From Rallus limicola (Eukaryota > Chordata > Aves > Gruiformes > Rallidae): DNA of 64,000 bases. The position numbers and the translations under genes were made by a program. Positions within the stretch are counted from its first letter, which is position 1. Each line of letters begins with the position of its first letter. The stretch lies in contig JAKCOZ010000006.1 of the NCBI GenBank assembly GCA_022605955.1, forward strand, positions 434,001 through 498,000, read 5' to 3'. The notes beneath the pieces were generated by a model. That model searched no databases, was not told where the DNA came from, and worked only from the letters and a program-made list of their open reading frames with translations. Below are positions 4,601 to 52,392 of this stretch, one piece after another.

Positions 4601-5984
4601 GGTTTTTCCTTTTTTTCCTCATCTTTCACACCAAATTAACAACATAAACTCAAGTGTCCTTCCAGTGGAAAGCAAAGAACTACACAGGAAGCTGCAAAAT
4701 GTACAAAACAAAGAAAATTGATTCATCTTTCATATAGCATCTTCTTACATCTCTTTATGTGGAAGCCTAACAGATTTTCAAAACAAGTATACTGGAAGTG
4801 CCCTTTCACCATCCAAACTCTCAAAAGGGAGGGAAGCGTTTACTTTGCAGCAAATATGCAGCAGCCACGTTACTCCTTCCCCCCTCACCCCATTCAACCA
4901 TCCTAAGCCTCTCCAGACAAAGAAAAGAGCATGGAGAGAAACATCAGGAGTTTCATTCCAACCTGTTTTGCACTGAAGTAATACAGTAGCAATTCATATT
5001 CTCAAGGAACACGACAGCTCATGATTTGCAAAGGAGTTGCTGAAGGCTTTGCATGACTCAGAAAACTCCCATGCTTCAGATGAGCTTCAATAAGGAGGGA
5101 AAACCCTGCCTGAAAACATTCAAAGGAAAGCAAATATTTTCACCTCAGTACTCTGTCTGGCACAGAAATCTCCAAAGCATGAACATCATACCTGGAAGCA
5201 GCCAAAAGATGGCTTAATGGTGTGCACGCTTACTCCTAAACTGAAGGCATACTCACCTCTCAATGCACAAACGAGCTTTTGCTTCTGTGGAAGGCATCAA
5301 ATACAGACTTTGCATTGCAGCAGTTACAGTTTCACCACAGTCCCCAGGCCTGGCACCAAAGCTTCTTGAGCTAGTTCTAAAAAGAGAAAGCTGTTAGGAG
5401 TCACATCATCACAAAATGAAGAAATATGCCCACTGTGCAGACCGAGACACCTCATCCCAGCTGAGATTCAGGGAATACATTGCACGAGAACTCACTATTA
5501 TCGGTTCACACATTGGAAGAATTATCACCAAATTAAATACCTGACATCAAAAAAGATGCCAGATTTAAACTCCTAGGGGTCTCTCCTATGATTAATTGCT
5601 CACAGCATTCAGAGAATAGTGCTGCACCACAAAACCAGTTTCAATCCAACAGAGATTACCCTTACAGTTACCCCACTGAGGCCACCATCACCAAGCTCCA
5701 GACAGGCCCCTGCAGCAAGGCCAAATCACTGATGAATCCTCTGTTGTGCAATATTACTCTGGAGACAGTTTCAAGCACTTCAAATTCCCTAAGCTATTAA
5801 AAGAGAGAAAATAAAACAGGACCTTGAAACACTCTCAAAAACTGACAAGGCTCAAAAAGACTATGCAACACAACCATGCTTGAAAGACATCTTTAGTCTC
5901 CTTTCCAATTTTCCCCTGCTAAGCCACTAGAAACTTTGCAGGTAAGAGTTCGGTTAACAGGCAAGATGTGTACCAATGCTTTGA

Positions 5985-6310
5985 TTATCAGAGAACCACA
6001 GGCTGGCTTGGCTTGGCAGGGACCTCAAAGCCCATCTCGATCCAGCACCCCTGCCATGGGCAGGGACCACCTCCACTAGACCACGTTGCCCAAAGCCCCA
6101 GCCAACCGGGCCTTGAACACTGCCAGGGAGGGGGCAGACACAGCTTCTCTGGGCAGCCAGGCCCACACTGTCCTCACAGGGAAGTTCTTCCTCATAGCTA
6201 ATCTAAATCTGTCCTCCTTCAGGTTAAAACCATTATTCTTTCTCCTTGTCAACAGTTGCTCTCCATCTTCTCTGTAGGCCCCCTTTAGGCACTAGAAGGC
6301 TGCAGCAAGC
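5985..6310 (-). mobile_element. CR1 LINE 3' fragment (copy A)
   Basis: Antisense CR1 3' region: GGCAGGGACCTCAAAGCCCA, then a GGCCTTGAACACTGCCAGGG block and CTTCTCTGGGCAGCC. Its paralogue is at 35631-35955; copy C lacks it because its homology ends at 61221, joining block D2. Confidence 0.8.
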
Positions 6311-6625
6311 TTTCCCTTGGAGCCTTCTCCTCTCCAGGCTGAACTGTGCCCTACATTGTCAACTGTGCTATGTAAAAGAATAAAAAATGTTACAAAAATC
6401 CCTGAAGATTCACTGGGAATTATGATCAGCCTAACGCAAAGAGACATGCACATTTCAGCTTGGGCCCCAATCTGTAATAGACTAACAAAATTAACACTGG
6501 CTGGTTTTGAAGTATGGCCTGTGGTAAGATTTGAAATTATTCCTAACAAAACACTTCTAGACCACATGGACAAACCCTGCCTGCTGAAGGGCAAAATCAA
6601 TGGCAGCTGTTACTCCCCCTCTTCA

Positions 6626-7299
6626 GAGGCTTCTAGTGGCAACCGAGATGCTCTGGCTTTGAGACACAAGCACCTCAATTTCCATTCCATCAGCTTTCAG
6701 CTTGTGGGAGTCAGTTTGTATTATTTTCACTTTCGTGCCCTGTAGAACTTGCAACGTGACTGTTGGGTTTTTGCTGGTCAGGGAACAAATCTGTTTCAAG
6801 CAACACATAGAAAGTGTTAAGTAATGACAAAAGCTGTCTCCTTCTCCAAATGGTAAAACATATGTGGCAATAAAAATCAATTGCAGTGTTAACATCTGTT
6901 GTCAGGCAAAAAAAAAAGGGGGGTGGGGGGGTGGGAGGCATGGAACGAAACAGCTGTGAAACCCCAGGGTGTAGAAATGAGTTAGCAGAAAATCCTGCTT
7001 CCTCAGCATTACTTCTAAGATTGGCACTTTACATTTCTGGAAGCTGAACCTGTAAGGATGAAGCTTAATCCCGCCTTCCACAAAGAAATCCTCACGCTTA
7101 TTACAAAAGCATAACTACGCTGGACATCACATCAGCCAGCAGGCCAGGTAGACGGGCTCCTGCTTATGGACACTGCGGCCTCCCAGCTGAAGCACATACC
7201 CCAGGGAAAGCCCCACCACCCAGACAGAAAGCAGCACCTTATGCTGAGCTCTTCGTAAACCCAGAAAGGCCTGTGCATCACAAAAGCACACGACTTCTA
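6626..7299. other. FBXO15 copy A intron 1, non-duplicated part
   Basis: Begins where similarity to copy B ends. A minus-strand open stretch near 6795-6626 follows a plausible acceptor but lacks a donor and a family match, so no exon is called. A G-run near 6919-6938 is present. Confidence 0.5.
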
Positions 7300-7920
7300 C
7301 GAAGACATCCCCTTGCACAGGGCCAGGGGGAGGGCGGGGAGGCCACCACAGCCACGAGGGAGCAGCCCGAGCTGTGGCAAACGCTCAACTGGAAAGCAGG
7401 AGCTGCAATGGGAACTACAAGGGAAACAAGAAGCCACCCCCCGCGGACAAGAGGACAAAGGAGGAGCAAGCAGCCCTGGGGCTACAGAGCTCTGCTCCCC
7501 ACTCCAGCTTCCCTCCGGAGGCCTCTCCTCGGGCCGCGCAGGGACACCCTTACCTGGGCCCGGCGGCCCGGCCGAGCCGAGGCACGGCGGCGACAGCAGT
7601 GCGGAGGCTAAAAGGCCGCGGCGGCCCCCCCTCGGCGGCACGGCGGTAAGCCACCACGTCGGCCGCCGCTGCCGCGCCGCGGCTGTACCGCCACAGGGCC
7701 CTGCCGCGGGCCGTGGCCAGGGGGAGCGTCGCCATGGCACAGCGCCTTCGCGCCGGGCAGGGAGGGAACGGGGCGGTGTCGCCACCTCCCACGTGACGCC
7801 ACCGTGCCAGCCCGGGAGGCGGCCGCCCGGGACGGGACGGGGGCTGAGCCCTTCCTGGGCCGGGGGAGAGACAACCTGCGGGCTTCGCCTTCGCACCTGA
7901 GCGCTTTAGCTGCAGGCAAG
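7300..7920. promoter_or_regulatory. CpG island over FBXO15 exon 1
   Basis: A CpG-dense, GC-rich block stands out from the AT-rich flanks. On the minus strand it contains an ATG at 7735 followed by 60 open codons and a consensus donor at 7553. The product starts MATLPLATARGRALW and is Ala/Arg-rich. The phase-2 end fits FBXO15 exon 2. Only copy A has this island; the homology to copies B and C stops at about 6625. In mammals FBXO15 lies head-to-head with TIMM21, so a bidirectional promoter is possible, but I saw no TIMM21 exon on the plus strand. Confidence 0.65.
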
Positions 7921-8039
7921 GGACACCCCCTGTTATAAACGGCCGTGACGAATGGTAGAGTTCCATCTTTTTCTGGTGATCCTATTGTTTTCCTAGCAGC
8001 ATTCAGTGTGTTGCTTCCAATCTATTCTTTACCAGCCCA

Positions 8040-9690
8040 ATAATCTTATTTAGTATGCAGGGTCAGCACAGTAATAAGCATTGGGGTCATTGCCATAACC
8101 TCTCCCTGGGTTTGACCTAGGGCAGAAATAAATCCATATTTTTATATGCAAGGAGATATGGGGGCCAGTTGGCAGAGAGTAGTATTGAAAGTAGGGGCTC
8201 CCACCGTCATTACTTGCTGAACGAGGGCCTGGTCCTCCCGTCAAATTAAGCTCCACTTGTAAGGCTGATGGGGACTCTCCTTTCCAGTCCTTACACCTAG
8301 GTCCCATCACCTGTACAGGTAACATTAAACCTGAGAAGGACAGAGGGCTCTTACCTGTAATACGGGTTCCCCAGGGCCCTTGTCCAGTGCTTTGTCTTTT
8401 ATCTTCCTTGCCTCCTAGGGATGGTGGGAGGTGTGGGGTAGTCGCTGAGACAATTCCACTTTGGGCTCGCATTTTAAGGGGCCCCGTGAGCTGATTCCAG
8501 AGGTGGTTCACTAACCTCACTCCCCACAGTATTATGTCTCTGCCTCCACCGTCTACTCTTTTGCTGAGAGCAACGGGGTGTGCCATCTTCTCAGCAGCAG
8601 GCATATTCTTCAGGGGAACCTCCTTCATCCCGCGCTCACTTGATTTGTATGCTTTCCTATGCATCCCTACTTCTTTAGGATTAAACCACACATTGCTTGT
8701 ACCCCCCAATGACTCCCTTGGTGTAAAATGGCCATTATTGTCCTCATGATTTGTTTATTTAGCATCTCTCATCCATCTGAGAGAATCCACTTCCTTTCTT
8801 CTGTTTCAATAGCTCCCAATTCCTTCCGTCCTTTTTTCTCTCCTTCAGTGAAAATTGGAGCCTCCTTTGGTTCAGATACACAAGGAGTAAGATTACACAT
8901 TTTAACCAATTCAGGCCTGAAGGCAGCTTCTTTGGCTACCTCATCTGCCAATCTGTTCCCTCTAAGCTTCCAAGGAATTCCCTTGCTGATGCAGATTTAC
9001 ATGGACAAATTGCAATTTCTCTGGGTAGGAGCAAATTCTTCCAAACCTGTTTCACCAGTTCCCCATGTACCAAAATGCCCAAAGTAACATCTCTGTAACA
9101 GTCCCATCTGAGCATATCCAAGTTAACTGATGTGGAACATAAAGAGTTAAGTCATCATCAAGAGTTAATTGCCCACAGATCCAGGGATCTGACAGGAAGA
9201 TTTCTTAGTATATTCTAAATCTTTATAGTTTGGGCTACCATTACCTCTCCTTTGTGCAATTTTGACACAAGCAGGTGGCACTGACTAAATGCCGTAATGA
9301 AGGAATTAACCACAAACCACAAACCAGAGGCTTCAAATGAGCTTTGATTTAATTTATTATTAAATGGCCATTTCCATTCAAAAATCTCCCCAAATTACTG
9401 ACTTATTCTGGTTCCAGAGCCAATCTAATTTTTTAACCCATGTCCACAGGGAGAGCTGTTAGAGGGGTCCCTTGAGTAGGGGTATGTGGTAAAGGCAAAC
9501 AGGTAATCACATGAGAAAACTTAAGCATACGAGCAAAACCTTGTAGCATTTGATAGATCACATTGTCTGGTTCAGTGTGATTTATAATCAGAGAACCATC
9601 GCCATGTTCAAAAGCTCCAGGCTCTATATTCCATATACTAGATTCTGTAACAACTACAGCCATGACGTAGCTCTTATTATTACAACTTGA
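8040..9690 (-). mobile_element. Decayed gammaretrovirus-like pol/env remnant
   Basis: Read on the minus strand. Around 9663-9600 is an RNase H-like start (AVVVTESSIW). Near 8951-8769 comes the RNase H C-terminal region with its ADEVAKEAA motif. An env-like frame at 8709-8050 ends in an IYFCPRSNP ... NAYYCA motif, typical of gammaretroviral surface protein, just before the conserved WGCET-type region, which is missing. Frames are broken by shifts and deletions, most of integrase is gone, and no LTRs were identified. This is an old non-coding fossil; the class assignment is from motifs only. Confidence 0.6.
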
Positions 9691-9927
9691 GTTACAAACA
9701 ATCGCTCCTATTGAAACAAACAGACAAACAGACAGACAAAACTAAGACCAGAAAACCAAAACTCCCAGCCTCTGCTTCAGGTTTCAGTACTTCTTCAACT
9801 TCTTCCAGGTACAGGTCATATTTCAGACTTACACCTATGAGGTCTCCACCCCACTTCTTCTCAGCTGTCCCTTTTCTTTTCCTTACTGGAGCAGTCCTGT
9901 GATTTTTGCAAAAGCAACATTTCCCAG

Positions 9928-10190
9928 CCTTTTCCACAGTGACTGCAGACTGACCATGAGCCAGCAGTGTGCCCGGGGGGCCAGCAAGGCCACTGCCATC
10001 CTGGCTTGTGTCAGCAATAGTGTGGCCAGTAGGTCTGGGGACGGTGATTGCGCCCCTGGACTGGGCACTGGGGAGGCTGCACCTTGAGTGCTGGGTCCAG
10101 TTCTGGGCTCCTCAGCATCAGAAGGACATGGAGGTCCTGGAGCGAGTCCAGAGAAGGGCAACCAGGCTGGGGAAGGGGCTTACCTCAACT
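9928..10190 (+). mobile_element. CR1 ORF2 C-terminal fragment, sense
   Basis: The plus strand encodes, across frames, [31 protein letters not shown] and ATRLGKGL, the conserved CR1 reverse-transcriptase C-terminal region. It is truncated at both ends. Confidence 0.85.
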
Positions 10191-10584
10191 CCTAAGCCCC
10201 TCAAAATGTATTTTCTCCCCTATCCAACTAAAAAGGGGAGTGAGAGATTAACTGCTACCTGAGGTACTGAGAGATCTGGGTCTGCACAGGGCAGGAGCAG
10301 TTGGACTCCAGGAGCTTAAAGGGCTTTTCCAAGCCTGTGAGTCTGGGATTCACCCAACGGGCAGTGGTGGGTGACAGGCCAGAGCTGGGTGTGTGGGTGG
10401 GACTGGGCTGGGCCCTGGTGATTCCTCTTCTTCCTTCCTGCCGCTTCCAATAAACAGCCCCCATGGGGCCTGATCACAGCAGAGCTCGGGGCTCCTGCAC
10501 CTCTTGTGGGGGTTTAGGGGTGTTCTCCCAACCCTGGGGTGCCCCTGGGAAAGGCCAAGGGAAAGGGGATGGTTGGGGAGAAGA

Positions 10585-10944
10585 GGGAAGGGAAGGGAAG
10601 GGAAGGGAAGGGAAGGGAAGGGAAGGGAAGGGAAGGGAAGGGAAGGGAAGGGAAGGGAAGGGAAGGGAAGGGAAGGGAAGGGAAGGGAAGGGAAGGGAAG
10701 GGAAGGGAAGGGAAGGGAAGGGAAGGGAAGGGAAGGGAAGGGAAGGGAAGGGAAGGGAAGGGAAGGGAAGGGAAGGGAAGGGAAGGGAAGGGAAGGGAAG
10801 GGAAGGGAAGGGAAGGGAAGGGAAGGGAAGGGAAGGGAAGGGAAGGGAAGGGAAGGGAAGGGAAGGGAAGGGAAGGGAAGGGAAGGGAAGGGAAGGGAAG
10901 GGAAGGGAAGGGAAGGGAAGGGAAGGGAAGGGAAGGGAAGGGAA
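10585..10944 (+). repeat. GGGAA pentanucleotide microsatellite, about 72 units
   Basis: An uninterrupted run of a 5-bp purine unit over 360 bases. The long reading frames across it in all frames are an artefact of the repeat. Perfect regularity suggests recent expansion. Confidence 0.98.
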
Positions 10945-12009
10945 AGCATGAGAGCCAGAGGTGTGAGTCCCTGGCCAGACGTGCCACATGTGTGTGCAAA
11001 GAGCAGCTGCCCCCCACTCTGGGTGGAAGGCACCCCCACAGCCCCCAGAGGGCTCAGTCACATGAGGTGGGCTGTGCGGCCTTGACACCACAGCGATGGC
11101 TGCACCCAGCCCACCCTCCAGCCCCCTGCCTCTCCCTGTCCTTGCACAGGGTCTGCTGGGGACACCGTCTCCACTCCTGGGGCACCCCAATCCTGTGTCA
11201 GACCCCCCCAACTCTCCCCATGGAGCCCCCTGTGCCCTCCAGCTGTCTTGGGGGTCCCCCAATTCTCTCCTAGCTGCCCTGCCAGCCCCAAGTGCGGTGC
11301 AAGGGGGTGCCAGGCCTCAGCCACCTCCCCATCCCTTCAGGTGGGCACCCCAACCTCCATCCCTGCCTCCCATGGGGGGCCATAGCTGCAGCTCAGCTCC
11401 TGGAACCTTGTGATGAGCAGCTGAAGTGGGGACCAATGGCCATGGGCAGGGGGTCCCCTCCTGAGCCCAACGCCTCAGCTCATCACCACCACCCTGGAGG
11501 CACCTCAGGGATCACATCTGCCGAACCCCAACCGTTGTCATGTCTACAGCAAGGCCTGCAGTGAATCCCATGGGCTTTTCTTCTACCCCCCCAGTACTCC
11601 CCTCATCACCCTGGCACCCCCAAACCCTCCCTGGCCTCATGCATGAGCTGTGCTGGGAGTAATGCAACCCCCCCACCTTGCTCCCCCCCTCCCCACAATA
11701 ATCCTCCATCACCCACTGGGTCACTGCAGGGTGGCAGGAAAAACTGACCACTAGAAACTCCTGGTTTGTTGGTGGGGTTTATGTATTTAATACAAACAGA
11801 GGGAACTAAGAATGGGTTAGAGAGATGGGAGCTGGGTTATAAACAAGAACAGGGATCAAAAGATAATCTAACAATGGGGGGAAAACAAAAGGAGTGAAAT
11901 CCCCAAGAAAAGCCCAGAAACTTATGGGGTGTCAAGGGATAAACTGGCTCTGTCCCTGGCCAGGAGACGATGGAGGTCAGAGAGGCACGAGGGGAGAGGC
12001 GCTTCCCAC
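10945..12009. other. GC-rich spacer and 3' flank of the cassette gene
   Basis: C-rich sequence with no supported gene. It includes the probable 3' untranslated region of the minus-strand cassette gene; no canonical AATAAA was found on the minus strand near 11,750-12,000. Confidence 0.5.
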
Positions 12010-15000
12010 TCATTGTCTCCTGCTTCTCCCTGCAGAGGAGAGAAAAGAGACACAGTTGCAGCCTGGGCCCTCTGGTGGGACCCCCAGGCAGCAGCCCCTC
12101 CCCAGCCAGCAGGCAGGGATACCCAAAGCGGGCAGCAAACAGGTGGAGAGTCTGGGGCTGGAGCTGGGGGTCTCCCCAGCACTCACCAGTTGCCCTGGCG
12201 TTCTCTGTTCCTCCAGTTGCTTGGGAAGAACCTGATGAGGGACGAGACATGAGTCAGAGGCTGGCAGCCCCCAGCACAGCCCCGGGTCAGGGCTGCTGTG
12301 GGGTGTCAGCCCTTTGCAGGGTGCTTGGTGCTGGGGTCACTCACCGCTCGGCTGCTCTGGATCGACTCTCGCCGTGCTCTTCCCACACTTCTCCCACCAA
12401 CACTTCTGTAAGACCCCCAGAACATGGGTGAGTGTGGAGCAGCTCCCAGCCCCATGCTACAGTCCCCCGTGCTCCCCCCACACCTCTCCATTTCATGACA
12501 CTGACCTGCTCTTGAGGCATCTCTCCTGGCAGCTCGAGAGGGGGGTCTTGGTCATGGGCTGACCCCGGCTCTGTCACCGGTCCCTCAAGAGCTCGATGGG
12601 TCTGGAGGGCTCGAGATCTGCTGCGAGCCTCCAGCTGCACCATCCCACCGGGTCTGGACTCCAGGAAGGAGTCAAGAGAAACCGACCTGCTGCCCAACAG
12701 AGAGCCCAGGGAGACCATGGAGCCCAGCAGAGTACGAGGGGACAGGCCCCTCATGGTCATCCTCTGCTGGCTCTGGAGGGCTCGCGATGGGATGCGAGCT
12801 TCCTGCTCCCCCATCGCACCAGGCCTGGGCTCTGGGAATGACTCGAGGGATGCAGATATGCTGTCCAAGAGAGAGCCCAGGGACAGCATGGAGCCCAGCA
12901 GAGCATGTGGGGACAGGCGCGTCATGCTCCTTGTCTCCTCGATCTCCCTGCAGAGTAGGAGAGAGAAGAGACCCAGTTGCAGCCTGGCCTCTCTGGTGGG
13001 ACCCCAGGGCAGCAGCTTCTCCCCAGCCAGCAGGCAGGGCTGCCCAATGTGGGCAGGGGCAGGGCACAGGCTGACGCGGAGGCAGGAGCTGGGGGTCTCC
13101 CCAGCACTCACCACATGTCCTGGGGTGCCACAGGCTTCTCTGCACCTCCAGTTGCTCGGGAAGAACCTGATGAGGTATGAGGAGTAAGTCAGAGGCTGGC
13201 AGCCCCCAGCATAGGGGCTGTCCTTGCCCACATTGGGGCATTGCCGTGGGGTGTCAGCCCTTTGCAGGGTGCTTGGTGCTGGGGTCACTCACAGCTCGGC
13301 CGCTCAGGATCGACTCTCGCCGTGCTCTTCCCAAAGTTCTTCTTACAAAAATTCTGCAACATACCCAGAATGTGAGTGAGTGTTGAACAACTCCCAGCCT
13401 CATGCTACAGTCCCCCGTGCTGCCCCCACACCTCTCCATTTCATGACACTGACCTGCTCTTGGGGCATCTCTCCTGGCTGCTCCAGAGTGGGGTCTTGGT
13501 CAAGGACTGACCCCGGCTCTGTCACCGGCCCCTCAAGAGCTCGATGGGTCTGGAGGGCTCGAGATCGGCTGCGAGCCTCCAGCTGCACCATCCCACCGTG
13601 TCTGGACTCCAGGAAGGAGTCAAGAGACACCGACCTGCTGCCCAACAGAGAGCCCAGGGAGACCATGGAGCCCAGCAGAGTACGAGGGGACAGGCCCGTC
13701 ACGGTCATCCTCTGCTGGCTCTGGAGGGCTCGCGATGGGTTGCGAGCTTCCTGCTCCCCCATCGCACCAGGCCTGGGCTCTGGGAAGGAACTGAGAGATG
13801 CAGATATGCTGCCCAGGAGAGAGCCCAGAGAGACCATGGAGCCCAGCAAACCACATGGGGACAGTTGCCTCAAGCTCCTTGTCTCCTCGATCTCCCTGCA
13901 GTGTGGGAGAGAGAAGAGATCCAGTTGCAGCCTGGCCTCTCTGGTGGGACCCCGAGGCAGCAGCTCCTCCCCAGCCAGCAGGCAGGACTTCCCAAATGTG
14001 GGCAAGGACAGGGCACAGGCTGAGGCTGAGGTAGGAGCTGGGGGTCTCCCCAGCACTCACCACATGTCCTGGGGTGCCGCGGGCTTCTCTGCACCTCCAG
14101 TTGCTCGGGAAGAACCTGATGAGGGGTGAGACACAAATGAGTGTCTGGAAATCCCCAGTATAGCCCCATGTCTGGGATACCGTGGGGTGTCAGCCCTTTG
14201 CAGGGCACTTGGTGCCGGGGTCACTCACCACTTGGCTTCTCCAGATGGACTCTCGCCTTGCTCTTTCCACACCTCTTCTTCCGACACTTCTGTAAGATAC
14301 CCAGAACAACGTTGAGTGTGGAGCAGCTCCCAGCCCTATGCTACAGACCCCCATGCTGTCCCCACACCACTCCATGTCATGACATGGTGCAGTGCAGTGT
14401 GGTGGACAGTACCAGTCACCTACCTTGAGTCGCCTGGCAGAAGGCTGCACTTCCCTGGGGCTGGACTTAGGAAAGGATTCGAGACACGCGGATCCGCTGT
14501 CTGAGAGGGAGTCCAGGGAGCCCATGGAGCTCTGCGGGGCACGTGGGGACTGGCGCTTCCCGCTCACTGTCTCCTTGTTCTCCCTGCAGAGGAGGAGAGA
14601 GAAGGGACCACCTGCAGCCTGGGCCCTCCTGTGGGACCCCCGGGCAGCACCCTTTCTGCAGCCAGCAGGCAGGGCTGTCCAAAATGAGTAGGGGCAGGGC
14701 ACAGGCTGAGTCTGGAACAGGAGCTGGGGGTCTCCCCAGCACTCACCACATGTTCTTGGGTGCCGCAGCCTTCGCTGTTGCTCCAGTTGCTTGGGAAGAA
14801 CCTGAGGAGGGACGAGACCAAGTGAGTGGCTGGCAGCCCCCAGCACAGCCCCGGTGTCTGAGCTGCCTTCAGGTGTCAGCCCTTTACAGGGTGCTCACAG
14901 CTGGGATCACTCACAGCTTGGCTGCTCTGGATCGACTCTCGCCTTGCTCTTCCCAAATATCTTCTTCCACCAGTTCTGCAAGACCCCCAGAACATGGGTG

Positions 15001-16723
15001 AGTGTGGAGCAGCTCCCAGCCCTATGCTACAGACCCCCATGCTCCCCCCCCACACCACTCCATGTCATGACATGGTGCAGTGCAGTGTGGTGGACAGTAA
15101 CAGTCACCTACCTTGAGTCGCCTGGCAGAAGGCTCCACTTCCCTGGGGCTGGACTCGGGGAAAGATTCGAGACACGCGGATCCGCTGTCCGAGAGGGAGT
15201 CCAGGGAGCCCATGGAGCTCTGCGGGGCACGTGGGGACTGGCGCTTCCCGCTCACTGTCTCCTTGTTCTCCCTGCAGAGGAGGAGAGAGAAGGGACCACT
15301 TGCAGCCTGGGCCCTCCTGTGGGACCCCTGGGCAGCAGTCCCTCCCTGGCAGGCAGGCAGGGATACCCAAAATGGGCAGAGCATAGGTAGAGAGTCTGGA
15401 GCAGGAGCTGGGGGTCTCCCCAGCACTCACCACATGGTCTCGGGTGCCGCAGGCTTCTCCGTTGCTCCAGTTTCTTGGGAAGAACCTGATGAGGGACGAG
15501 ACGTGTGTCAGAGGCTGGCAGCCCCCAGCACAGCCCCTGTCAGGGCTGCCGTGGGCTGTCAGCCCTTTGCAGGGCGCTCGGTGCCGGGGTCACTCACCGC
15601 TCGGCTGCTCGGGATGCACTCCCGCCTTGCTCTTCCCAAACATCTTCTTCTTCCCACACTTCTGCAAGAACCCCAGAACAAGGCTGAGTGTGCAGCAGCT
15701 CCCAGCCCTGTGCCACAGTCCCTCATGCTCCATCCAACCACTCCATGTCATGTCACACTGCAGCACAGTGTGGTGCTGAGGAACAGTCACCTACCTTGAG
15801 CCTGCTGGGAGAAGCCTCCACTTCTTCCCTTGCGCTGGTCTCAGGGAAGGAGTCCGGAGACATGGAGACCTTGGTCTCCTCATTCTCCCTGCTGAGGAGG
15901 ACAGAGAAGGGACCCAGTTGCAGCCTGGCCCCACTGATGGGACCCTCCCCCTTTCCCCCACCCCCAGGCAGCAGCCCCTCCCAAGCCAGCAGGCAGGGCT
16001 CCCAAGGTGGGTAGAGACAGAGCACAGGCAGTGAGTGTGGGGCAAGAGGTGGGGGTCTCCCCAGCACTCACCACATGGTATCGGGTGCCGCAGGCTTGTC
16101 TACTCCACCAGTTACTTGGAAAGAACCTGAGGAGAGACGAGACCAAGTGAGTGTCTGGCAGCCCCCAGCACAGCCCCGTGTCAGGGCTGCCGTGGGCTGT
16201 CAGCCCTTTGCAGGGCGCACGGTGATAGGGTCACTCACAGCTCGGCTGGTCAGGATCAACTCTCGAATGGGTCTTTCCAAACCTCTTCCTCCAACACTTC
16301 TGCAAGACCCCCAGAACGTGGGTGAGTGTGCAGCAGCTCCCATCCCCTTGCCACCGTCCCCCATGCTCCCCCAACACCACTCCATGTCAGGACATGGTGC
16401 AGCACAGTGTGGTGCAGAGGAAGAGTCACCTACCCTGAGTCTCGCCTTGCTGATCCCGTACCCCTTCCTCCAACGCCTCTTCCCGTGCTTCCTCCTCCAA
16501 CGCCTCTGCAAGACCCCCAGACAGTTCGTGACATGGGAGCAGCTCCCGGCCACCCACACCCCCCCGACACCAGCCCATGTCGGGACACGGCACGGCTCAG
16601 TGCGCCGCAACGTTCCCTTACCCTGAGCCTCCTGGCCCATTGAAAGGTGGTGAGGAACCTGATGTACAGCCCCAGCATCATGACTGGGAGCACATCAGCC
16701 AGGGAGATGCCGAAGCACCCCAT
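12010..16723 (-). CDS. Unrecognised multi-cassette gene, about 20 exons, 726 codons
   Basis: I do not recognise this gene. Exon 1 (16723-16622) starts in a good context (GCCATGG) and encodes a hydrophobic stretch, ISLADVLPVMMLGLYIRFL, a probable membrane anchor. Exon 2 (16505-16434) is very basic (RRWRRKHGKRRWRKGYG). Then three-exon cassettes K, S, E follow. K: 16299-16239, 15661-15598, 14975-14915, 14289-14229, 13353-13293, 12405-12345. S: 16126-16072, 15485-15431, 14801-14747, 14115-14061, 13166-13112, 12231-12187. E: 15888-15795, 15271-15112, 14583-14424, 13895-13454, 12947-12506, 12029-12010. K encodes a KCxKKxFGKSxARVDPEQPS-like peptide, S an SSxATGGxEKPAAP peptide, and E a Ser-rich acidic peptide (SMGSLDSLSDSGSACLESF). 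Every joint is GT-AG and phase-compatible, with no internal stop. The last S exon is 45 rather than 55 nt, shifting the last E exon to an early TGA (12012-12010). Exon structure is directly visible; expression and function are unknown. Confidence 0.68.
12185..16330 (-). repeat. Tandem three-exon cassette array, six units
   Basis: Six imperfect genomic units of about 640-930 bp repeat exons and introns together, so they arose by tandem duplication of genomic DNA. Units 2 and 3 share near-identical E exons of 160 nt. Units 4 and 5 share E exons of 442 nt, which are themselves an internal doubling of an LSPxxLLGSMxSLGSLL module. Unit 1 has a shortened 94-nt E exon and unit 6 a shortened S exon. 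The very similar pairs 2/3 and 4/5 suggest recent duplication or gene conversion. Confidence 0.8.
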
Positions 16724-16904
16724 GGCTATGGCTGGTGTCCACCTGTGTCACTCGGGTCACCAAGGAGCTCCGAGATCTCCAGGAACCGCACAACCAACAC
16801 ACCCACTGGCAATGGCTGAGGCCGCAGTCTGCAGTGACACCGACAGACTACAGTGTCCAGTGCCAACTGCCCTGCGCCCCTCACACCTGTCCAGCAACCA
16901 CACA

Positions 16905-17012
16905 CCCCCTTGGTGACATCACGGGCACGCTGAGCCCTCATTGGTGCTGAGCCCTCATTGGTGCTGAGCCCTCATTGGTGCCCTCAGATGCAGGCAGAAC
17001 GTTGATTGGATA
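16905..17012 (-). promoter_or_regulatory. Candidate promoter with CCAAT triplet and CRE-like site
   Basis: Upstream of the cassette gene ATG (16723) there are three perfect tandem 17-bp units at 16929-16945, 16946-16962 and 16963-16979, each carrying an inverted CCAAT box (ATTGG on the plus strand). A fourth ATTGG lies in GTTGATTGG near 17002. A CRE-like TGACATCA lies at 16914-16921. Distances to the ATG are about 195-280 bp. Such CCAAT plus CRE layouts are common in TATA-less promoters, including germline ones; use here is inferred. Confidence 0.5.
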
Positions 17013-17095
17013 AATCCGCTGTCACTCCAAGGCATCCCACAGCCAGTGCAGACAGATGCAAGGGGCTCAGGGGGGCTTGAAAGTCTCCCTGGACA

Positions 17096-17290
17096 TAGAA
17101 TCATAGAACCATAGACTGGTCTGGGTTGGAAGGAACCCCAAGGATCATACGGTTCCAACCCCCTGCCACAGGCTGGGACACCAACCTCCAGGCCTGGAGC
17201 TACACAACATTGCCCAGGGCCCCAACCAACCTGGCCTTGAACACCTCCAGGGACAGGGCACCCACCCCCTCTCTGGGCAGCCTGTTCCAG
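17096..17290 (-). mobile_element. CR1 3' fragment, antisense
   Basis: ATAGAATCATAGAACCATAG, then TCTGGGTTGGAAGG and CTCTCTGGGCAGCCTGTTCC are the reverse complement of a CR1 3' end. Confidence 0.85.
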
Positions 17291-17307
17291 CCTCTCCCTA
17301 CTCTCTC

Positions 17308-17467
17308 TTACTTTTTAAAAGGGTAGATAATGGCAGGACAAGGGGGAATGGATTCAAGCTGAAGGAAGGAAGGTTTAAATGGGCTATTAGGAGGAAGTTC
17401 TTTCCAGAGAACCTTTCTGTGATCCTCTTGACCCTTTCCAAACCCAGACTAGTCTATGATTCTATAA
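17308..17467 (+). mobile_element. CR1 3' fragment, sense
   Basis: TTTTTAAAAGGGTAGATAAT through GGAGGAAGTTCTTTCC to a TATGATTCTATAAAG end. It lies back-to-back with the antisense fragment at 17096-17290, so these are two insertions. Confidence 0.8.
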
Positions 17468-20429
17468 AGAAAACTAATTGATTACTACTACAACTACACA
17501 CCCAGTGAACCAGAGTCGGGTGATGAGAAGTGCAGCCAGATCTTCAAGCACCTTCCCCCCACCACTCCCTTCTTAGCAGACTTAAACTTCGCAGACTCGA
17601 CATGGCCTGGGGAGGGGCAGGGAATGGGGGGTGGGGGTTTTCAGTCAGTTCCTTTTTAGCTGGGTGTGGGGGGCAGATTACACGTGTGTCCCCCCACACA
17701 CACACACACACATACACACCCTTCCCCTGCAGCAACATGGGGTCCCACCCACAGCAGACAGTCCTCCACCAACTTCTCCAGCATGAGTCCTTTCTATCAG
17801 GGAGTCATCTCCTCACCATAGGCCTCAGCACAGCTCCCACCATGGGGTGCTGACCTTCAGGCCCAGACCACCTCATGTATTTCGGACACTTTTACAAGCC
17901 ATGGGAAAACTTAAGAGTCATTCAAGCCGTGCTCTTCTGCCTGCTTTCACCAGCACGCAGTCAGACACCTGGGAGAGGTGGGGGGGACGGTAAGAAACCA
18001 CCTTGGCAAAGGTGGCACTCCCAGAGGCATAATGCAAACTATCAGACCATCCAAACAATATAATAAAAATAATCCTTAGGATTACTCCTGCAAATGTATG
18101 CTTTTGGAGGTTTTCAGGTAAAATGGAACACTTTCTGAACCTACCCAACTTCACACTCTGCAGAAAACGGAGCAGTTCCAAGGGAGAACTAGGCAAAAAA
18201 AGTGGTATTGAAGACAAATCTAGAAGTCATCTGCAGAGCTTGGACAGTGAGGATTTTAAAAAGCTATACAATCTATTCTCAGTTCATTGATCAAAGATCT
18301 GCTAGCATGAAAAACATTGCAAAGCAATCTCTTCCTTCAGCTTGAGATGAACAGTAATGTTTTGACCATACAAATTAACTACGAGGCAGTGAGATGTACC
18401 CCAGTTCTTGTGCAAACCTTAGCAGCAAAGCCCAACTCTGAGCCTCCTTGCACATTTTCCAGTGGAACCATCCTGACTCTCCATATACCCTACAGAAATG
18501 AATGCAGCAGGATACAGAAACACCAGGACTGACCCAGGCAGAGTGAAATCAAGGAGCCTGGCACAGAATTCACGGAGGAGACAGGAGCTGCTGGATGGTA
18601 GCGAGAAGTCTAATGAAAAAACATCATTCAAGGCAAAATGTGCAGAAGCCCAAAGGTCACAGTGAGTGTGAACTAGAACTGCAGGCACAGTAACTAGTTC
18701 CTCAGGGAGTGACTCTAGGGCAGTGATAAGCAAGCACGTACAATCAAATGCATCCTGACTTCCAAAGCTGAGATTGCTCGGCTGTGTAGCCACATGGGGA
18801 GAGCAGTTACTAGGAAAGGGTATTTGCATGACCATCCCTACGTTTACTGCTGCAGTTGCAAGATATGCTGCCTGGAAGGCAGGAAAGGGAAACAACATGA
18901 ACTTCATCTTTCTCAGCCCAGCAAAACTGGCCCCAGCTACTTTTGGAGTTCTTCTCAAGCACTCATTTCCCATTGCCAACCTTCTCCTCTCAGAAAAAAA
19001 AAAAAAAAGGGGGCGTGGGGGCATGTTTCTACAGAGACCTTACCAAATTCTCTCTCTGATAGTAACCCCATTAGGAGCCATTACAAGGAGATGCATTTTA
19101 CCCTTACTTGAGGTGACTGCAGGTGCTTTAACACAAGCCCAGTGCTTCCTACCTAATGCTACAAAGACAATTTCCCCAATAAGCACAGGAATAAACTTCC
19201 TCATAAATAAGGGCATTGTGAATACCAAAAGCAAATTATCTATCAACAGAACCTTAGACCTTTCAAATATACACTCACGTTTAAAATGCTTCTCACGTAC
19301 AGCTTGCTGGGATCAAACCCTTGCCCACAGATGTGCTTCTGTCAATATTCTCAGGGAAAAAAATCTGGGAGTATGAGAGAAGAAGGTAGGGATTATTTCT
19401 TTTCCCAAAGAGTCAAACTACACATTTGCATAGATACTCAACGTGAGGTTTTGAAGTAGACAGTACCTCTTGAGCCACCAGTTAAAACAGAGTCAGAGAG
19501 ATTCAACAGGGCCTTCTTTCAGTATCAGATATTCTACCTTGGTTATTGCAAAGCAGCGGGACAAGATCAGCCACATAACTGAAAAGCAGGTTATAAACTG
19601 CTTGCATGTCAAAACTGGTGTCTCCCCACAGTTAACTGAAGACTGTAACCCAACTGCAGGTTTATGCTACTGCAGGATTGAATTTCTGGAAAAGGATGAT
19701 GAAGCTAGCTGGCTGCATCACCTTTGGTATCTCTCGAGGCAGCAAAGCTGAAAGGACAGGACTTCTGAGCTATTTCTCTATAGCTGGAGGTGACATGCCC
19801 AAGGCAAAGGTGCTGACAAACCATAGAGCCATCCATGTTGCACCATTCTTGATCAATTTAAAGCATCTCTGCCTGAAGGAAGCACTTTCCACAGTCTTAA
19901 ATGAACTTAAAATGCAAGCTAGGAAAAGCATTGCCTATAATACCAACAGGAGGGGTTTTTTAACTCAATGACTAAGATTAACCAATTTCAGTGCCAATTA
20001 CAAAATTCCTTTTAGCTTAAACTCATTCAACTCCCTTATGCCTTAACATTCCTGGGGCTACATGATCAGTGTGCAACTTCTTCTACTGAACCAATCAGCC
20101 TCAACAGAACTTCAGCTCAACATTTTCACAAGAGGACCCTCTCCCTTTCACGAAGGGCATCAGGAGTCGCCCCACAACTCTGTAAGGTGCTGTTAGACTT
20201 TTGTGTAGCTGGGTTCTGCTGAAGGAGTGGGGCTGCAGAGATGGCACCTACAAGAAGCAGCCAGAAGCTCTCTGCAGGCCCCACAGAGCAAACACCAGCC
20301 GGCTCAAGGCCGGAGTCGCTGCTGACCAAGGCCAAGTCCCTCAGCAACGGTCACAGCGCCCCTGGGAATCACAGTGAGGAGAAAAAAACTCAAGCAGCTG
20401 CTTTTTTCCACAAGAGAAGAGAGTGAGAT
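17468..20429. other. Intergenic stretch with no supported gene
   Basis: Scattered open frames (the longest about 200 codons, near 18419-19376 on both strands) overlap each other and lack convincing splice context or family match. An A-run lies at about 18992-19006. Confidence 0.5.
17694..17720 (+). repeat. CA dinucleotide run
   Basis: Short CACACA tract just after a C-rich stretch. Confidence 0.85.
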
Positions 20430-21170
20430 GTAAGAAGCCATGCAGACACCAAGGTCAGTGAAGATGGGGGGTAAGTGAAGATGACCGTGCAGACACCAAG
20501 GTCAGTGAAGGTGGGGGGAAAGAAGATGCTCCAGGTGCCAGGGAGAAAGATGCCCCTGTAGCCCTGGAGAAACCCATGGTAGAGCAGATGTCCCACCACA
20601 GCCCACGGAAGAGGATGGGGAGCAGAGACCCCACCTGCAGCCTGTGAAGAGGCCCCACGCTGGAGCAGGTAGAGACATACAGAGGACGCTGTGACCCGCA
20701 TTGTATCGAGCCCCTGCCAGCACCTGCAGCCCGTGCAGAGAGACAGAGACACAGAGATGAGCGAGGGAGAGAGATCTGCGCCGGAGCAGGTTTGCTGGGG
20801 GGGCTTGTGACCCATGGGGAAGCAGGCTGGGGCAGGCTGGCCCTGAGAGACTCAGATGTTCTATGATTTATGACAGCTCACCAGAGCAGTGACCCACGCT
20901 GGGGCAGCTGGTGAAGAGCTGAAGCTCCATAGGAAAGGACTCACATTGCAGAAGTTTGTGAAGGACTGTCTGCCATGGGTGGGACCCCACAGTGCAGCAG
21001 GGGAAGGCTGTGAGGGAAGCCACCCCCCACCCACCCCTCCCCAGCTAAGAAGGAAACCAACTTGTGAGGAACTGACTGAAACTTGTAGGAAGAGATGAAA
21101 CAAGATTTATTGTAGTTACTGTGTGGCCAGACCGTTCCTGACAGTAAGGAAGCTTAAAAAAAGTCTGGGC
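20430..21170 (+). mobile_element. LTR-like avian interspersed repeat (tentative)
   Basis: A GC-rich stretch of loosely repeated phrases (CACCAAGGTCAGTGAAG, GCCTGTGAAGAGGCC, CCCACGCTGGAGCAGG) resembles LTRs of avian ERVL-type elements as I recall them. Bases 20885 onward recur at 61222. No terminal boundary was confirmed. Confidence 0.4.
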
Positions 21171-22535
21171 AGCTCCCAGAAGCAAACCTGCCAAACAGCA
21201 GACAAATGAAGAAGGGACATCCCCCTTAATCCAATCACTTGGATTAAGAAAATAGAGGCAGGACCTGATGTAAAAAAACATGGGAAGAAACTAGTCAAGA
21301 AGCAAGAGCAATAGGAAACAAAGAAGAAGAAGAGGTAGAGGTTGAACCCTGAAGTACAGAACCTTTTTCCACCTTCAGCTGCAACCCTCACATGTGCCAT
21401 TACTACACCCACCTTTTCCTTGTGGTCTCCCACTGCAGTTTCCAAGGAAGAGCTGAGAAGATGCCCATTGGTTTACTGCATTCATTGTGCCAGCCTTCCA
21501 TTGCATTTCCTCAACCCTCAACAGAGGTCCACAGTGCAGGAGACTACTGGTTATCATCAGCAACACAATTCACTGAGGTTCTAGTCCAAAACTCCAGGAA
21601 ATTGCCCAGCTCCTGGTGAATTTTGCATTCTGAAAGATGGAAATGATCCTGGAAATAAAAATACACCTCTGAGTAAGGATTGCAACAAAGCACTGGGTTC
21701 CATGCACCATCCACACTGCCTTTGTGCTTCCACCCAAACTCCCATCTCTCTCCTGGCACTCATCTCGTGACAAGCTGTTTGAGAAGCTCTTAGTTCCACT
21801 GTGGTGCAAGAAGGTTCATGGACTCAAAAGCCCTCCATGTCTCTCACCTGCCTCTAAGCACCTTAGTGGCAAGGCAGGAATCCCATTACTACAGTCTTTC
21901 ACTACCTGCATGGCAAAGTAAGAGCTACATGGGGGAAGCTGAGGGGGGAAGGATTCCTTTTCTGCTGAGGCAGCAGAGATTGTGCTATTCCAAAACTCCA
22001 GTAAATTACTGCCCAGGAAATTAGTTTCCATATAAATTCTGGCAAAAAAAACCCGCCCCAAAGAAATCAAGACTGGCTTTATGCTAATGTCCATGTATTT
22101 GTTGGAAATGAGTGATTTGCTTAAATCAGATTTTTAACAGTCAAAGCAAAACTATCAATGCAAATCAGGAAACTTAAATAATCTTCCTCCTACTGAATGT
22201 AATTCTGCCCAGTTTCACTGCTAGGGAAGTTACTTCAGCTCTGACAAAGACAGGGGATTATAAAGGACATCTATACTGGAAGTCCATAGCGCTGAATTAG
22301 TAGGGAATAAACATTAAGTGTTGAGCTAAAGCACCGACTGAAACTCCACTTCTAATAAATCCTGGAATAAATGTCTCATGTAGCACAAGTATGGATGCAC
22401 AGTTGGATTTGCAGATGGGCATCTCTTTAGACTTCAAAATTTGCAGACATCTTCCTCTCTGCACTGCAATGTAGGCAATTTGCAGAAAGTTACTGTGGGT
22501 GCAGAATGAGGGACCAAGGCAAATTGCAATTTCAC

Positions 22536-22540
<5 letters not shown>

Positions 22541-22586
<46 letters not shown>
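22541..22586 (+). repeat. TA/TG dinucleotide microsatellite
   Basis: Short TATATA lead followed by about 20 TG units; the D2 counterpart is at 62761-62816, where one TA interrupts. Confidence 0.95.
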
Positions 22587-22587
<1 letters not shown>

Positions 22588-23356
22588 TTAGCAACTTCAA
22601 CGAAAGGTGCCAAGTACCTTAGAGGTTACACTGTCCTTACAGTCGTTGTGGAGAGATGCCAGGATAAAAGCCCCTGTCTCTCAGCAGTGATAAGCTCTGG
22701 GGCACTGTTGGGTTTCTTCCCACTTTTGCTGGCTGGCTGATGAGAATGAGGCGATGTAGGAACGGACCGATCAGTAACAGGCACAGTTCTGAGTTCCTGC
22801 TTTTGCGACAGAGCTCAGTGTTACAGCTGCCTTTCAATGGAATAGAGCTGCATAAAACAAGGCCAACTTTTTCCTACACAACAACAACAGACAGGTTAAC
22901 TAACACTTAAGTTCTAAAGAGCATCTTAAACTAACCCACATGTAGAGGTCTCCAGCTGCATAAAGCCAGACTGCAATACACCAGCGATGGTCCTTCAGAA
23001 TACCAAGTAAATTGGGCAAGAATCCCTGTGTCCCATAAATCCATCCACTGAAATCAGTGGAAACTGACAGCCTTTTGCTCATGATTTGTACATAACAAAG
23101 TCTGTTTATGTAAATTTACCTCTTCAGGATGCCACAGAGGAAGAAGCAAAGCAGAAAATGGATTCTTAAGACTAGAACATCACCTGCTGAAGGCACAGCA
23201 GGAAGTAGAATTCAGACACAAATCTTCTGATCCCAGAACAAAACAGACATCACCTTCAGTAACTTCATGGCTTGTCCATGCAAGCACATATGTGCCATTG
23301 TTTTTCTTTTAAGAGTAGATGTAGGCTGAAAACTGAAATGCTGAGATTGGGGGAAA

Positions 23357-23648
23357 AAAGGAAGGAAGGAAGGAAGGAAGGAAGGAAGGAAGGAAGGAAG
23401 CAAGCAAGCAAGCAAGCAAGCACGCAAGAAAGCAAGCACGCAAGAAAGCAAGCAAGCAAGAAAGCAAGCAAGCAAGAAAGCAAGCAAGCAAGAAAGCAAG
23501 CAAGCAAGAAAGCAAGCAAGCAAGAAAGCAAGCAAGCAAGAAAGCAAGCAAGCAAGAAAGAAAGCAAGCAAGAAAGAAAGCAAGCAAGAAAGAAAGCAAG
23601 CAAGAAAGAAAGCAAGAAAGAAAGCAAGCAAGCAAGAAAGAAAGAAAA
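23357..23648 (+). repeat. Compound GGAA / GCAA / GAAA tetranucleotide array
   Basis: About 11 GGAA units grade into GCAA runs interspersed with GAAA in a higher-order GCAAGCAAGAAA pattern. The 120-195-codon frames across it are repeat artefacts. Absent from block D2. Confidence 0.97.
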
Positions 23649-26004
23649 AAGAGCAGCATTTCAATTACCAAGTAGTAAAGATCCAATCCAGTCTTCACTG
23701 AATGTCCCACAACATGTAAAAGCAGAAACAAAACTTGGAATAAAAACATTACTTATTATTCCATTACTTATTCATGAAATGTCTTTTCATGATCACATGA
23801 CATTAGCATTACTAAACTCTGCCTTTTCTCAGGCACAGATATTCCCCTCTTACAAGTAAAGCCACTATTCCTACCATTCAAGCAAAAATAGTGATGAAAT
23901 AAAAAGAGACTGAAAAAAGCAGACTACTAATAAAAGAATGAAGCCCAGGACATCGCTACCACTGCATGACATTAATAACACAAACCACTGCACGGCTAGC
24001 TGGGTCACTTAGCTAAGGTGTGACTTGAAGCCAGAAGGGAAAGAGGCGACACAGATAAGGAATCTGAAGGCTAATTATTCATGGCTAAGTTATTTCAATA
24101 GTTACAACTAATTATTATAGAAGCTCCACTGCAATCCTCATATCCAGAAGAAAGAAAAAGTATGCCTACAAGGTAGCATGAAGCTGAAGCGCTCTGCAAT
24201 CTCCCCTTCTTCATCCCCATCAAATAGGAAAAAGGAAATGAAAGGGCAGAGCAAGCTACCTTAAGCATACTATGGGAAACACGGAGGAAGCACCTTGGAC
24301 AGGGCTTTCTTCAGCCTGATCTAGAATTCATTTCACTGTCCCTTATAATATTTACAGCTCAGAGTTTATGCAAGGAATGTGACAGCAGCAAAGCAGCCCT
24401 TTAATCAGTATAGATCATAGGAAACAAGTATTTCAAAATAAAGGGCACACCAATCTAGAGAACATATATCATGCAGACAAACCTCAAAAGAGCCAAAACA
24501 GGGGGGCAAAACAGCTAGTTACTGTGGTGCAAGCATTCATAACAAAAAACCCCAAACAGTCTGAAGCTGTATATACTCCATCCACCTGGTTCAATGACAC
24601 AACTTTTTTAATGCCAAGAACTTTGCAGCAAGAACTGAAAACAGAGCAGCACAGTGAAGGGCAACACTCCTGAACACTAACAAAAAGCAGACAAAACCAA
24701 AACTAAACGTGAACAAATGAGTCAGTTATTCTGCAGAACAGCAAATGAGCCTTCCCTGGTCGCCTATGAGTGTCTACAACTTCCTAACAGAAACAAATAA
24801 GTCAAACCCCAGGATAAGAGCTGACAACTGATCTGTGTCTCAGATTGGGGGAACTGCCATTGGCACCTCACATCCCTAATTCAGAATAGATCTGGATTGG
24901 GTGAAGAATTCTAAGAAAGAGACAGACTTCTCACTATGTCACAGACCTCCATGCTGCAGAGCCCTCCCACAGAAAGGGACCAAGAGCATCATTAGAAGAG
25001 AGACAAAAAACAAAACATAAACCATCAAATACAACCAGCTTGGACAAACCTACACTGCTGGCCACACTCAGAAACACCATGTTTACCAGAAAGAGCAGCA
25101 CGAACAACAAATTGCTGTGAAGGGATGTGACAGCAGACAGCCACAAGCTGCCTCACCACATCCTTTTTTTTTTAATCAGTAGTTACAGAGGAAATCAAGC
25201 ATTTTCCAAAAGGAATTGCTGTGCAAGGACATGAAGGGACTAGATAACAAATGAGCTTACTGCCTGCAGAACCATTCAGCTGGCTGATGTCCTGTGTGAG
25301 CAGAATCCAGTGGCTATCACACAGCTAAAGGCCACAAAACCAAAACAGGTCAGAAAACACTCATGATCATAACACAGACTCTCTAACTATCAAAGTGAGA
25401 TGGCACCACGACCATAGCTTCTGGACATTTCCTACAATGTGCATAACCATTAGCTTCATCTTGAACAGAAGTAGCTTCTAAGCACCATGTGATACCAACA
25501 AAGAAAAGCATGCCACACATTGCTTTCCCTGGTACAGCTGCATTGCTAGGAGCATAAAAAAATTTCATTTTAAAAAACAAAACATGACATTTACCTCATT
25601 CACCAACCCTCTGGTTGGGAAGGGGAGGTGGGAGGTGGGTGGTGGATAAAGAGGACTTCTATACTGTACACCACCTTGGGAGAGACTACTATTGGGATGT
25701 GGGCAGAATTTCACTCAAATTTTACCCTTCTAAGTATTCCTCTCTTTCAAGCTTGAAGTTTTTTGGGAATCTGAAAACATTCGTGTTTCAAATTCAAAGG
25801 ACAAAAGGCAAAAAAAGAGAAAAGAGGAGTACAGTTAAAAACAATTACTGATTTTTTTCATTACCAAGTGAAAAGGTGGCAGAAGAGGCAACCCTAAGAG
25901 GACCTAAATAAAAGCTATGTATCTTGTCAGTGCACCTCAAGTATCCTTCAGAAAACTTCTACAGAAACGTGTCTCTAAAATATAAAAGGACAAACCACTC
26001 TCCA

Positions 26005-52375: not shown

Positions 52376-52392
52376 TTATCCACCCCTTATTC
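52376..52392 (-). promoter_or_regulatory. Polypurine tract before the 3' LTR
   Basis: The minus strand has AATAAGGGGTGGATAA immediately upstream of the LTR TG end. Position and purine richness fit the plus-strand primer of an LTR element. Confidence 0.7.

What the first reader, a model, noticed from the sequence alone, without database searches (positions are those of the whole stretch)
12010..16723. Undescribed gene built from a phase-neutral three-exon cassette repeated six times
Reading the minus strand by splice sites gives 20 exons that join in frame for about 726 codons with no stop. Exon phases repeat as 0-1, 1-2, 2-0, so a whole K-S-E cassette can be duplicated or lost without breaking the frame. 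Exon lengths are conserved (K 61 or 64 nt, S 55 nt, E 94/160/160/442/442 nt), and length changes within K and E are multiples of three. An N-terminal hydrophobic anchor plus an Arg/Lys-rich exon precede basic K peptides alternating with Ser-rich acidic E peptides. I know of no family with this layout. It could be a fast-evolving, perhaps germline, membrane-anchored repeat protein.
Basis: partly seen in the sequence, partly recalled or inferred. Interest (0 to 1): 0.88.

Follow-up and report, generated by a model that had tools for sequence, protein, structure and literature searches.

The report
Bird orphan gene with repeated exon cassettes
A short bird gene, with no relative found among known proteins, appears to be one anchor exon followed by six or seven copies of the same three-exon block, each of which can be gained or lost without breaking the reading frame; no transcript has yet been seen.

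Summary
On the minus strand 20 exons (16723-12010) join into a 726-codon frame with 19 GT-AG introns. K, S and E exons carry phases 0-1, 1-2, 2-0. Corrections: the sixth S exon is 45 nt, not 55, its E exon is cut short, and the Arg-rich exon R2 is a collapsed cassette.

For a real gene: 20 of 20 gap-free splice-consensus columns are invariant between cassettes against 207 of 344 intron-interior columns; neutral simulation leaves all copies stop-free in 0.24-0.25% of runs. Against strong constraint: omega is about 0.67, exons are no more conserved than introns, and codon positions do not differ significantly. A 300-bp tract of 90-100% identity suggests gene conversion.

Two protein searches found no relative, though the database holds bird proteins. 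The gene sits in a tandem amplicon; one unit junction lacks its 15-kb segment.

Best reading: a young, fast-evolving, membrane-anchored, disordered, multivalent protein, perhaps germline-expressed. Expression, species and genome copy number were not tested; the genome search did not complete. A recent pseudogene is the main rival.

The parts
16622..16723 (-). Exon M1, 102 nt, start ATG with GCCATGG context, hydrophobic residues 3-21 then basic
16434..16505 (-). Exon R2, 72 nt, phase 0-0, net +13; read as a collapsed cassette (K start joined to E end)
16239..16299 (-). Exon K1, 61 nt, phase 0-1
16072..16126 (-). Exon S1, 55 nt, phase 1-2
15795..15888 (-). Exon E1, 94 nt, phase 2-0
15598..15661 (-). 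Exon K2, 64 nt
15431..15485 (-). Exon S2, 55 nt
15112..15271 (-). Exon E2, 160 nt; in a near-identical tract shared with E3
14915..14975 (-). Exon K3, 61 nt
14747..14801 (-). Exon S3, 55 nt
14424..14583 (-). Exon E3, 160 nt; 154/160 identical to E2
14229..14289 (-). Exon K4, 61 nt
14061..14115 (-). Exon S4, 55 nt
13454..13895 (-). Exon E4, 442 nt, with an internal 171-nt (57-codon) tandem duplication
13293..13353 (-). Exon K5, 61 nt
13112..13166 (-). Exon S5, 55 nt
12506..12947 (-). Exon E5, 442 nt, same internal 171-nt duplication; 411/442 identical to E4
12345..12405 (-). Exon K6, 61 nt
12187..12231 (-). Exon S6, 45 nt (10 nt shorter than the others; changes the frame)
12010..12029 (-). Coding part of last exon E6, 20 nt with stop 12012-12010; homology to E2 runs on to about 11963
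11786..11791 (-). ATTAAA, candidate polyadenylation signal
16929..16981 (-). 17-bp tandem repeat, 3 copies, carrying three CCAAT boxes (a fourth at 17005-17009); candidate promoter
16914..16921 (-). TGATGTCA, CRE-like octamer (single short motif; chance match possible)
6626..20884 (.). Segment holding the gene; apart from repeat-like matches of at most 242 bp it has no counterpart elsewhere in the window

Best explanation
A protein-coding orphan gene of one anchor exon plus a tandem array of frame-neutral K-S-E exon cassettes. SHOWN: the frame, the cassette phases, the constrained splice sites, the mixed K/E homology of R2, near-identical tracts between cassettes. INFERRED: the array grew by unequal exchange (a whole cassette can be gained or lost in frame) and its E blocks are homogenised by gene conversion. 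INFERRED: the product is a single-pass protein with a very short outer N-terminus and a tail of about 690 residues, largely disordered, on the cytosolic side (positive charge directly after the hydrophobic stretch). The tail repeats a basic patch with conserved GK...V...PS, a linker, a WExxET motif, Ser-Pro sites and an SFPE-like motif. GUESSED mechanism: the tail works as a multivalent tether in which basic patches bind an anionic partner (membrane, RNA or microtubule) and Ser-Pro phosphorylation tunes binding, so cassette number sets reach and avidity. Male-germline expression is the likeliest site, from the amplicon setting and a CCAAT/CRE-like upstream region, but is untested. My split: real protein-coding gene about 0.7; membrane-anchored about 0.5; germline about 0.4; tether mechanism about 0.25.
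For: Model and frame; other forward frames 13 and 14 stops; splice columns 20/20 against 207/344, p = 6.8e-5; neutral simulation P(no stop) 0.0024 and 0.0025; omega 0.67 on three topologies, 2dlnL 4.84-4.97 against omega = 1 (p about 0.03, my conversion); exon lengths 1 mod 3 in 16 of 17 (K1-6, S1-6, E1-5) while introns take all three values; start context, CCAAT repeat, ATTAAA; WExxET in 5 of 5 full E exons, SFPE-like motif 7 times, 10 Ser-Pro sites; basic K peptides and hydrophobic residues 3-21; E-exon model mean pLDDT 44.7 with two short helices, in keeping with disorder; amplicon units about 96-99% alike; in chicken, amplified genes are testis-biased on 7 of 10 dot chromosomes and the Z holds testis-expressed tandem arrays (passages of PMC9974502, and PMC7787181).
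Against: No transcript or peptide was seen. Exons are no more conserved than introns: invariant columns K 33/61, S 33/55 against introns 65/112, 98/159, 67/98. Codon positions do not differ (p = 0.48 over all). In S exons pN exceeds pS (0.191 against 0.141). S6 carries a frame change. Two searches of the protein set found nothing at E <= 10, although that set holds bird proteins, so a long-kept gene would have to have escaped annotation. The hydrophobic stretch is short, with Arg at 22. Testis arrays are not general in birds: the duck Z lacks the chicken ones (PMC7787181).
Confidence: 0.4

Rival explanations
1. A recently silenced member of a gene family: the array was coding until lately and stays open only because few mutations have struck since.
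For: Omega near 1 and no codon-position effect; exons and introns diverge alike; S6 frame change; a neighbouring amplicon junction lacks the 15-kb segment.
Against: All copies free of stops where neutral simulation expects about 8; splice columns invariant 20/20. These bear on the time in which the cassettes diverged, so silencing after the last duplications is not excluded.
Confidence: 0.25
2. A non-coding tandem duplication (or spliced long non-coding RNA) in G+C-rich DNA in which a long frame was found by choosing splice sites.
For: G+C 60% lowers the expected stop frequency to 3.4% per codon; antisense frames of the spliced sequence hold only 2 and 4 stops in two of three; no homologue.
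Against: The same splice sites are kept between cassettes, exon lengths keep frame in 16 of 17, neutral P(no stop) 0.0024 and 0.0025, start context and a polyadenylation signal flank the frame. A spliced non-coding RNA would explain the splice sites but not the frame.
Confidence: 0.12
3. A secreted protein: the hydrophobic start is a cleaved signal peptide and the repeats act outside the cell (eggshell, seminal fluid, immunity).
For: Hydrophobic residues 3-21; fast-evolving repeats are common in secreted proteins (established knowledge).
Against: No basic residue before the hydrophobic stretch; all 17 Lys/Arg of the M1 and R2 peptides lie after it, the pattern of a cytosol-facing anchor; no clear cleavage site seen by eye (no predictor was available).
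Confidence: 0.12
4. A nuclear, nucleic-acid-packing protein of spermatids (protamine-like): basic R2 and K patches bind DNA or RNA, and the hydrophobic start is not a true anchor.
For: Net charge +34, R2 +13; bird amplicons can carry testis genes (passages).
Against: Only 112 of 726 residues are Lys/Arg, with 78 Asp/Glu and 105 Ser, unlike protamines (recalled); hydrophobic start.
Confidence: 0.08

Closest known systems
Genes grown by tandem duplication of a multi-exon, frame-neutral set (for example the kringle IV units of apolipoprotein(a); recalled, not from a call)
   Same: Exons plus their introns duplicated as a block; the set begins and ends in one phase, so copy number can change in frame
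   Different: No sequence relation sought or found; no folded domain per unit predicted here; three small exons (K 20-21, S 18, E 32-148 residues) per unit
Testis-expressed amplicons of birds (chicken Z arrays and pericentromeric arrays of dot chromosomes; passages of PMC9974502 and PMC7787181 read)
   Same: Locus lies among tandem units of about 96-99% identity with CR1-like repeats and a retrovirus-like element
   Different: Within this window the gene is present once and is missing at a neighbouring unit junction; expression unknown; species and chromosome unknown
SPEM family, SPEM1-3 (testis proteins without known domains; passages of PMC10904452 read)
   Same: Works-like only: hydrophobic start followed by basic and disordered tail (SPEM layout recalled)
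   Different: No Pfam match to any such family; authors of PMC10904452 report no SPEM2 orthologue in chicken; no exon cassette array known to me
SPATA31/FAM205 family (layout recalled)
   Same: Short N-terminal hydrophobic stretch, basic stretch, long low-complexity tail, rapid evolution
   Different: No Pfam match; no cassette exons known to me

Membership tests
Gene with internally duplicated frame-neutral exon set | Repeated set starts and ends in the same phase | tested here: met
   K 0-1, S 1-2, E 2-0 in cassettes 1-5; broken in cassette 6 by S6 = 45 nt
Gene with internally duplicated frame-neutral exon set | Introns duplicated with the exons | tested here: met
   Homologous introns 73-93% alike between cassettes
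Gene with internally duplicated frame-neutral exon set | Spliced transcript joins the copies | not testable with these tools
   No RNA data on hand
SPEM or SPATA31 family | Match to the family's profile | tested here: not met
   Pfam scan at E <= 1 lists only PRAP, E 0.014, 16 bits against cut-off 27
SPEM or SPATA31 family | Male-germline expression | not testable with these tools
   No expression data
PRAP (PF15314) | Score above the curated cut-off | tested here: not met
   16 bits against 27, over 21 residues (641-661) of the protein
Avian testis-expressed amplicon | Tandem, near-identical units | tested here: met
   Flanking units match in pieces at about 96-99%
Avian testis-expressed amplicon | The gene itself is multicopy | tested here: inconclusive
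   One copy in the window; whole genome not reached (genome search did not complete)
Avian testis-expressed amplicon | Testis-biased expression | not testable with these tools
   No expression data

The most novel reading that the evidence does not exclude
A lineage-specific germline gene, born or amplified inside a bird amplicon, whose protein length is set by gain, loss and conversion of a frame-neutral three-exon cassette: a copy-number-tunable multivalent membrane tether evolving under genetic conflict, missed by annotation because it lies in repetitive, G+C-rich DNA.
Probability: 0.2. Interest if true: 0.75.

Novelty: new variant of a known kind. Interest (0 to 1): 0.5.

Why it matters
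If transcribed, it is an undescribed vertebrate gene family in a part of bird genomes that annotation may miss, and a clean case of a protein that can change length in steps of one cassette without frame loss. It would let one measure cassette gain, loss and conversion between individuals, and ask whether amplicon residence (as in chicken testis amplicons) drives it. If it proves silenced, it still shows how quickly such arrays turn over.

Tried and rejected
Homologue searches: full protein (726 aa) against 5.8 billion proteins, the 7990 candidates sharing most words scored, none at E <= 10; first 313 aa, 3999 candidates, none. The tool only weighs proteins 0.55-1.75 times the query's length and E-values are for 5.8 billion sequences, so short or very distant relatives could be missed. 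Control with hen lysozyme: 207 proteins, birds such as quail, geese and emu among the 120 listed. PDB: one chance hit, E 0.35. Pfam: nothing above cut-off. GTDB genome contigs and IMG/VR contigs with a 331-aa piece: 0 of 75 and 0 of 9 pattern matches confirmed; these collections are bacterial/archaeal and viral, so the result says little. Rfam 0, tRNA 0. 64 of the 152 listed open frames of 90 aa or more, chosen outside the gene and the retrovirus-like element, gave no Pfam match at E <= 0.01, so no neighbouring gene identifies the chromosome; shorter exons were not scanned. tblastn and blastn of the gene against the rest of the window: no second copy (best tblastn E 0.20).

Selection tests that did not favour coding are kept in the report: codon-position test p = 0.48, exons not more conserved than introns, S exons pN > pS. 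Codon analyses used cassettes 1-5 in full and only the first part of cassette 6 (K6 and 43 nt of S6, trimmed to whole codons); R2, the rest of S6 and E6 were left out. dS exceeds intron divergence in 11 of 15 pairs, which may reflect alignment of the E exons, so omega is rough.

Structure: E exon pieces only (E5 with E4, E3, E2), mean pLDDT 44.7; too poor for a fold search, so none was run.

Literature: ten counted searches showed no description of such a gene among the titles and abstract starts listed; of papers only passages of PMC10904452, PMC7787181 and PMC9974502 were read.
Full report
WHAT IS THERE. On the minus strand between 16723 and 12010 twenty exons join in one frame of 726 codons plus stop. 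All 19 introns begin GT and end AG and are 100-183 nt long. Exon M1 (34 codons) is followed by R2 (24 codons) and six K-S-E sets. K is 61 nt (64 in K2), S is 55 nt in five of six, E is 94, 160, 160, 442, 442 nt and then a truncated last copy. K enters at phase 0 and leaves at 1, S goes 1 to 2, E goes 2 to 0.

TWO ADDITIONS. First, R2 is not a separate domain. Its 3' end and the following intron align with the E donor region (84.6% over 143 columns to E1-K2, 85.3% over 156 to E2-K3); more weakly, the intron before it and its first 29 nt or so align with the E-K intron and the start of K (66% over 141 columns to E2-K3, E 4.7e-14). I read R2 as a cassette collapsed in frame to one 0-0 exon, so the gene is one anchor exon plus seven cassettes. 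Second, E4 and E5 each hold an internal 171-nt, 57-codon tandem duplication, and they use a donor that does not align with that of E1-E3.

IS IT MORE THAN CHANCE. The other two forward frames of the spliced sequence hold 13 and 14 stops; but the antisense frames hold 4, 2 and 11, so open frames are not rare in this G+C-rich DNA. Because the cassettes are copies of each other, I asked whether they stayed open while diverging. Simulated neutral change along the exon tree left no stop in any cassette in 0.24% and 0.25% of 10,000 runs for two starting sequences (mean 8.2 and 7.6 stops). Independently, of intron columns without gaps, 20 of 20 at the splice consensus are invariant against 207 of 344 in the interiors (Fisher p = 6.8e-5); 7 of 27 consensus columns were left out for gaps. 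K, S and E lengths are 1 mod 3 in 16 of 17 (K1-6, S1-6, E1-5), introns take all three values. A strong start context, four CCAAT boxes (three in a 17-bp tandem repeat), a CRE-like octamer and an ATTAAA at 11791 frame the gene; these short motifs are weak evidence on their own, and no TATA box was found in 16722-17250.

RESULTS AGAINST A WELL-CONSTRAINED GENE. A codon model gives omega 0.67 on three topologies, with 2dlnL 4.84-4.97 against omega = 1, a marginal result. Pooled pS is 0.281, pN 0.197 and intron divergence 0.181. In S exons pN (0.191) exceeds pS (0.141). Changes by codon position do not differ (48, 51, 60; p = 0.48). Exons are not more conserved than introns: 33 of 61 K and 33 of 55 S columns are invariant against 65 of 112, 98 of 159 and 67 of 98 intron columns. 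So frame and splice sites look kept, but the amino-acid sequence is nearly free to change. Twenty-one amino-acid columns are nevertheless invariant in all five or six cassettes that have them, among them GK, V, PS, TG, MWE..ET and SFP.

HOW THE ARRAY CHANGES. Exon and intron trees disagree. Between cassettes 2 and 3, of fourteen 50-nt blocks, six in a row over E and its flanks (about 300 nt) are 90-100% identical, four of them 98-100%; the other eight are 72-90%. I read this as gene conversion between E blocks on top of unequal exchange of whole cassettes; this is inference.

SURROUNDINGS. The window is a tandem amplicon: pieces within 1-6625, 20885-36837, 43120-51582 and 58840-63510 match each other at about 96-99%. 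The segment 6626-20884 that holds the gene has only repeat-like matches of at most 242 bp elsewhere in the window. At 61222/61223 the equivalents of 5914 and 20885 are directly joined, so the 15-kb segment with the gene is absent there; another unit has unrelated sequence in its place. Whether the segment was lost or gained is not certain, but the second unit shares sequence up to 6625, which favours loss at 61222. No neighbouring gene was recognised in 64 of 152 listed open frames. That the DNA is avian rests on CR1-like repeats, recognised from memory; I did not test it. In chicken, multicopy genes of pericentromeric amplicons are testis-biased on seven of ten dot chromosomes, and the Z holds tandem testis-expressed arrays, which the duck Z lacks (passages of PMC9974502, and PMC7787181). 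This makes germline expression a reasonable guess, no more.

RELATIVES. None was found: Pfam, PDB, and two searches of 5.8 billion proteins, a set that does hold bird proteins, though whether it holds this species or close kin is unknown. It is therefore an orphan at present, either young or unannotated. Ten literature searches listed no description of it.

HOW IT MOST LIKELY WORKS. The start is hydrophobic over residues 3-21 and is followed by net +13 in R2, which by the positive-inside rule places the long tail in the cytosol. K peptides are basic (+1 to +8); E peptides are not uniformly acidic (-4 to +3). The E exon is predicted mostly disordered with two short helices at low confidence. 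WExxET occurs in all five full E exons, SFPE-like motifs seven times, Ser-Pro ten times. I propose a membrane-anchored multivalent tether tuned by phosphorylation, with cassette number setting avidity. Only the anatomy is shown; the mechanism is a guess at about one in four.

VERDICT. Observation confirmed with corrections; interpretation partly supported. Most likely a real, fast-evolving orphan gene; a recently silenced gene is the main rival. Transcripts would decide.

Noticed in passing
51783-58549: Retrovirus-like element on the minus strand, flanked by 593-bp direct repeats that are 100% identical, with two long open frames; a recent insertion in one amplicon unit. Described only.
   Followed up: no
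61222/61223 against 5914 and 20885: Clean junction: the 15-kb segment that holds the gene in the first unit is absent here, i.e. presence/absence of the gene varies between neighbouring amplicon units.
   Followed up: partly
36838-43119: A 6.3-kb stretch unrelated to the first unit takes the place of the gene-bearing segment in the second unit; apart from a repeat-like match (39936-40176) nothing recognised.
   Followed up: partly
10584-10944: (AGGGA)n array, 72 perfect copies, about 0.8 kb beyond the gene's candidate polyadenylation signal.
   Followed up: no
23358-23644: Imperfect AAGC/16-bp tandem array, about 18 copies of the 16-mer.
   Followed up: no
15889-15894: E1 has a tandem acceptor (CAG CAG), so a three-base alternative splice would keep frame.
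   Followed up: no
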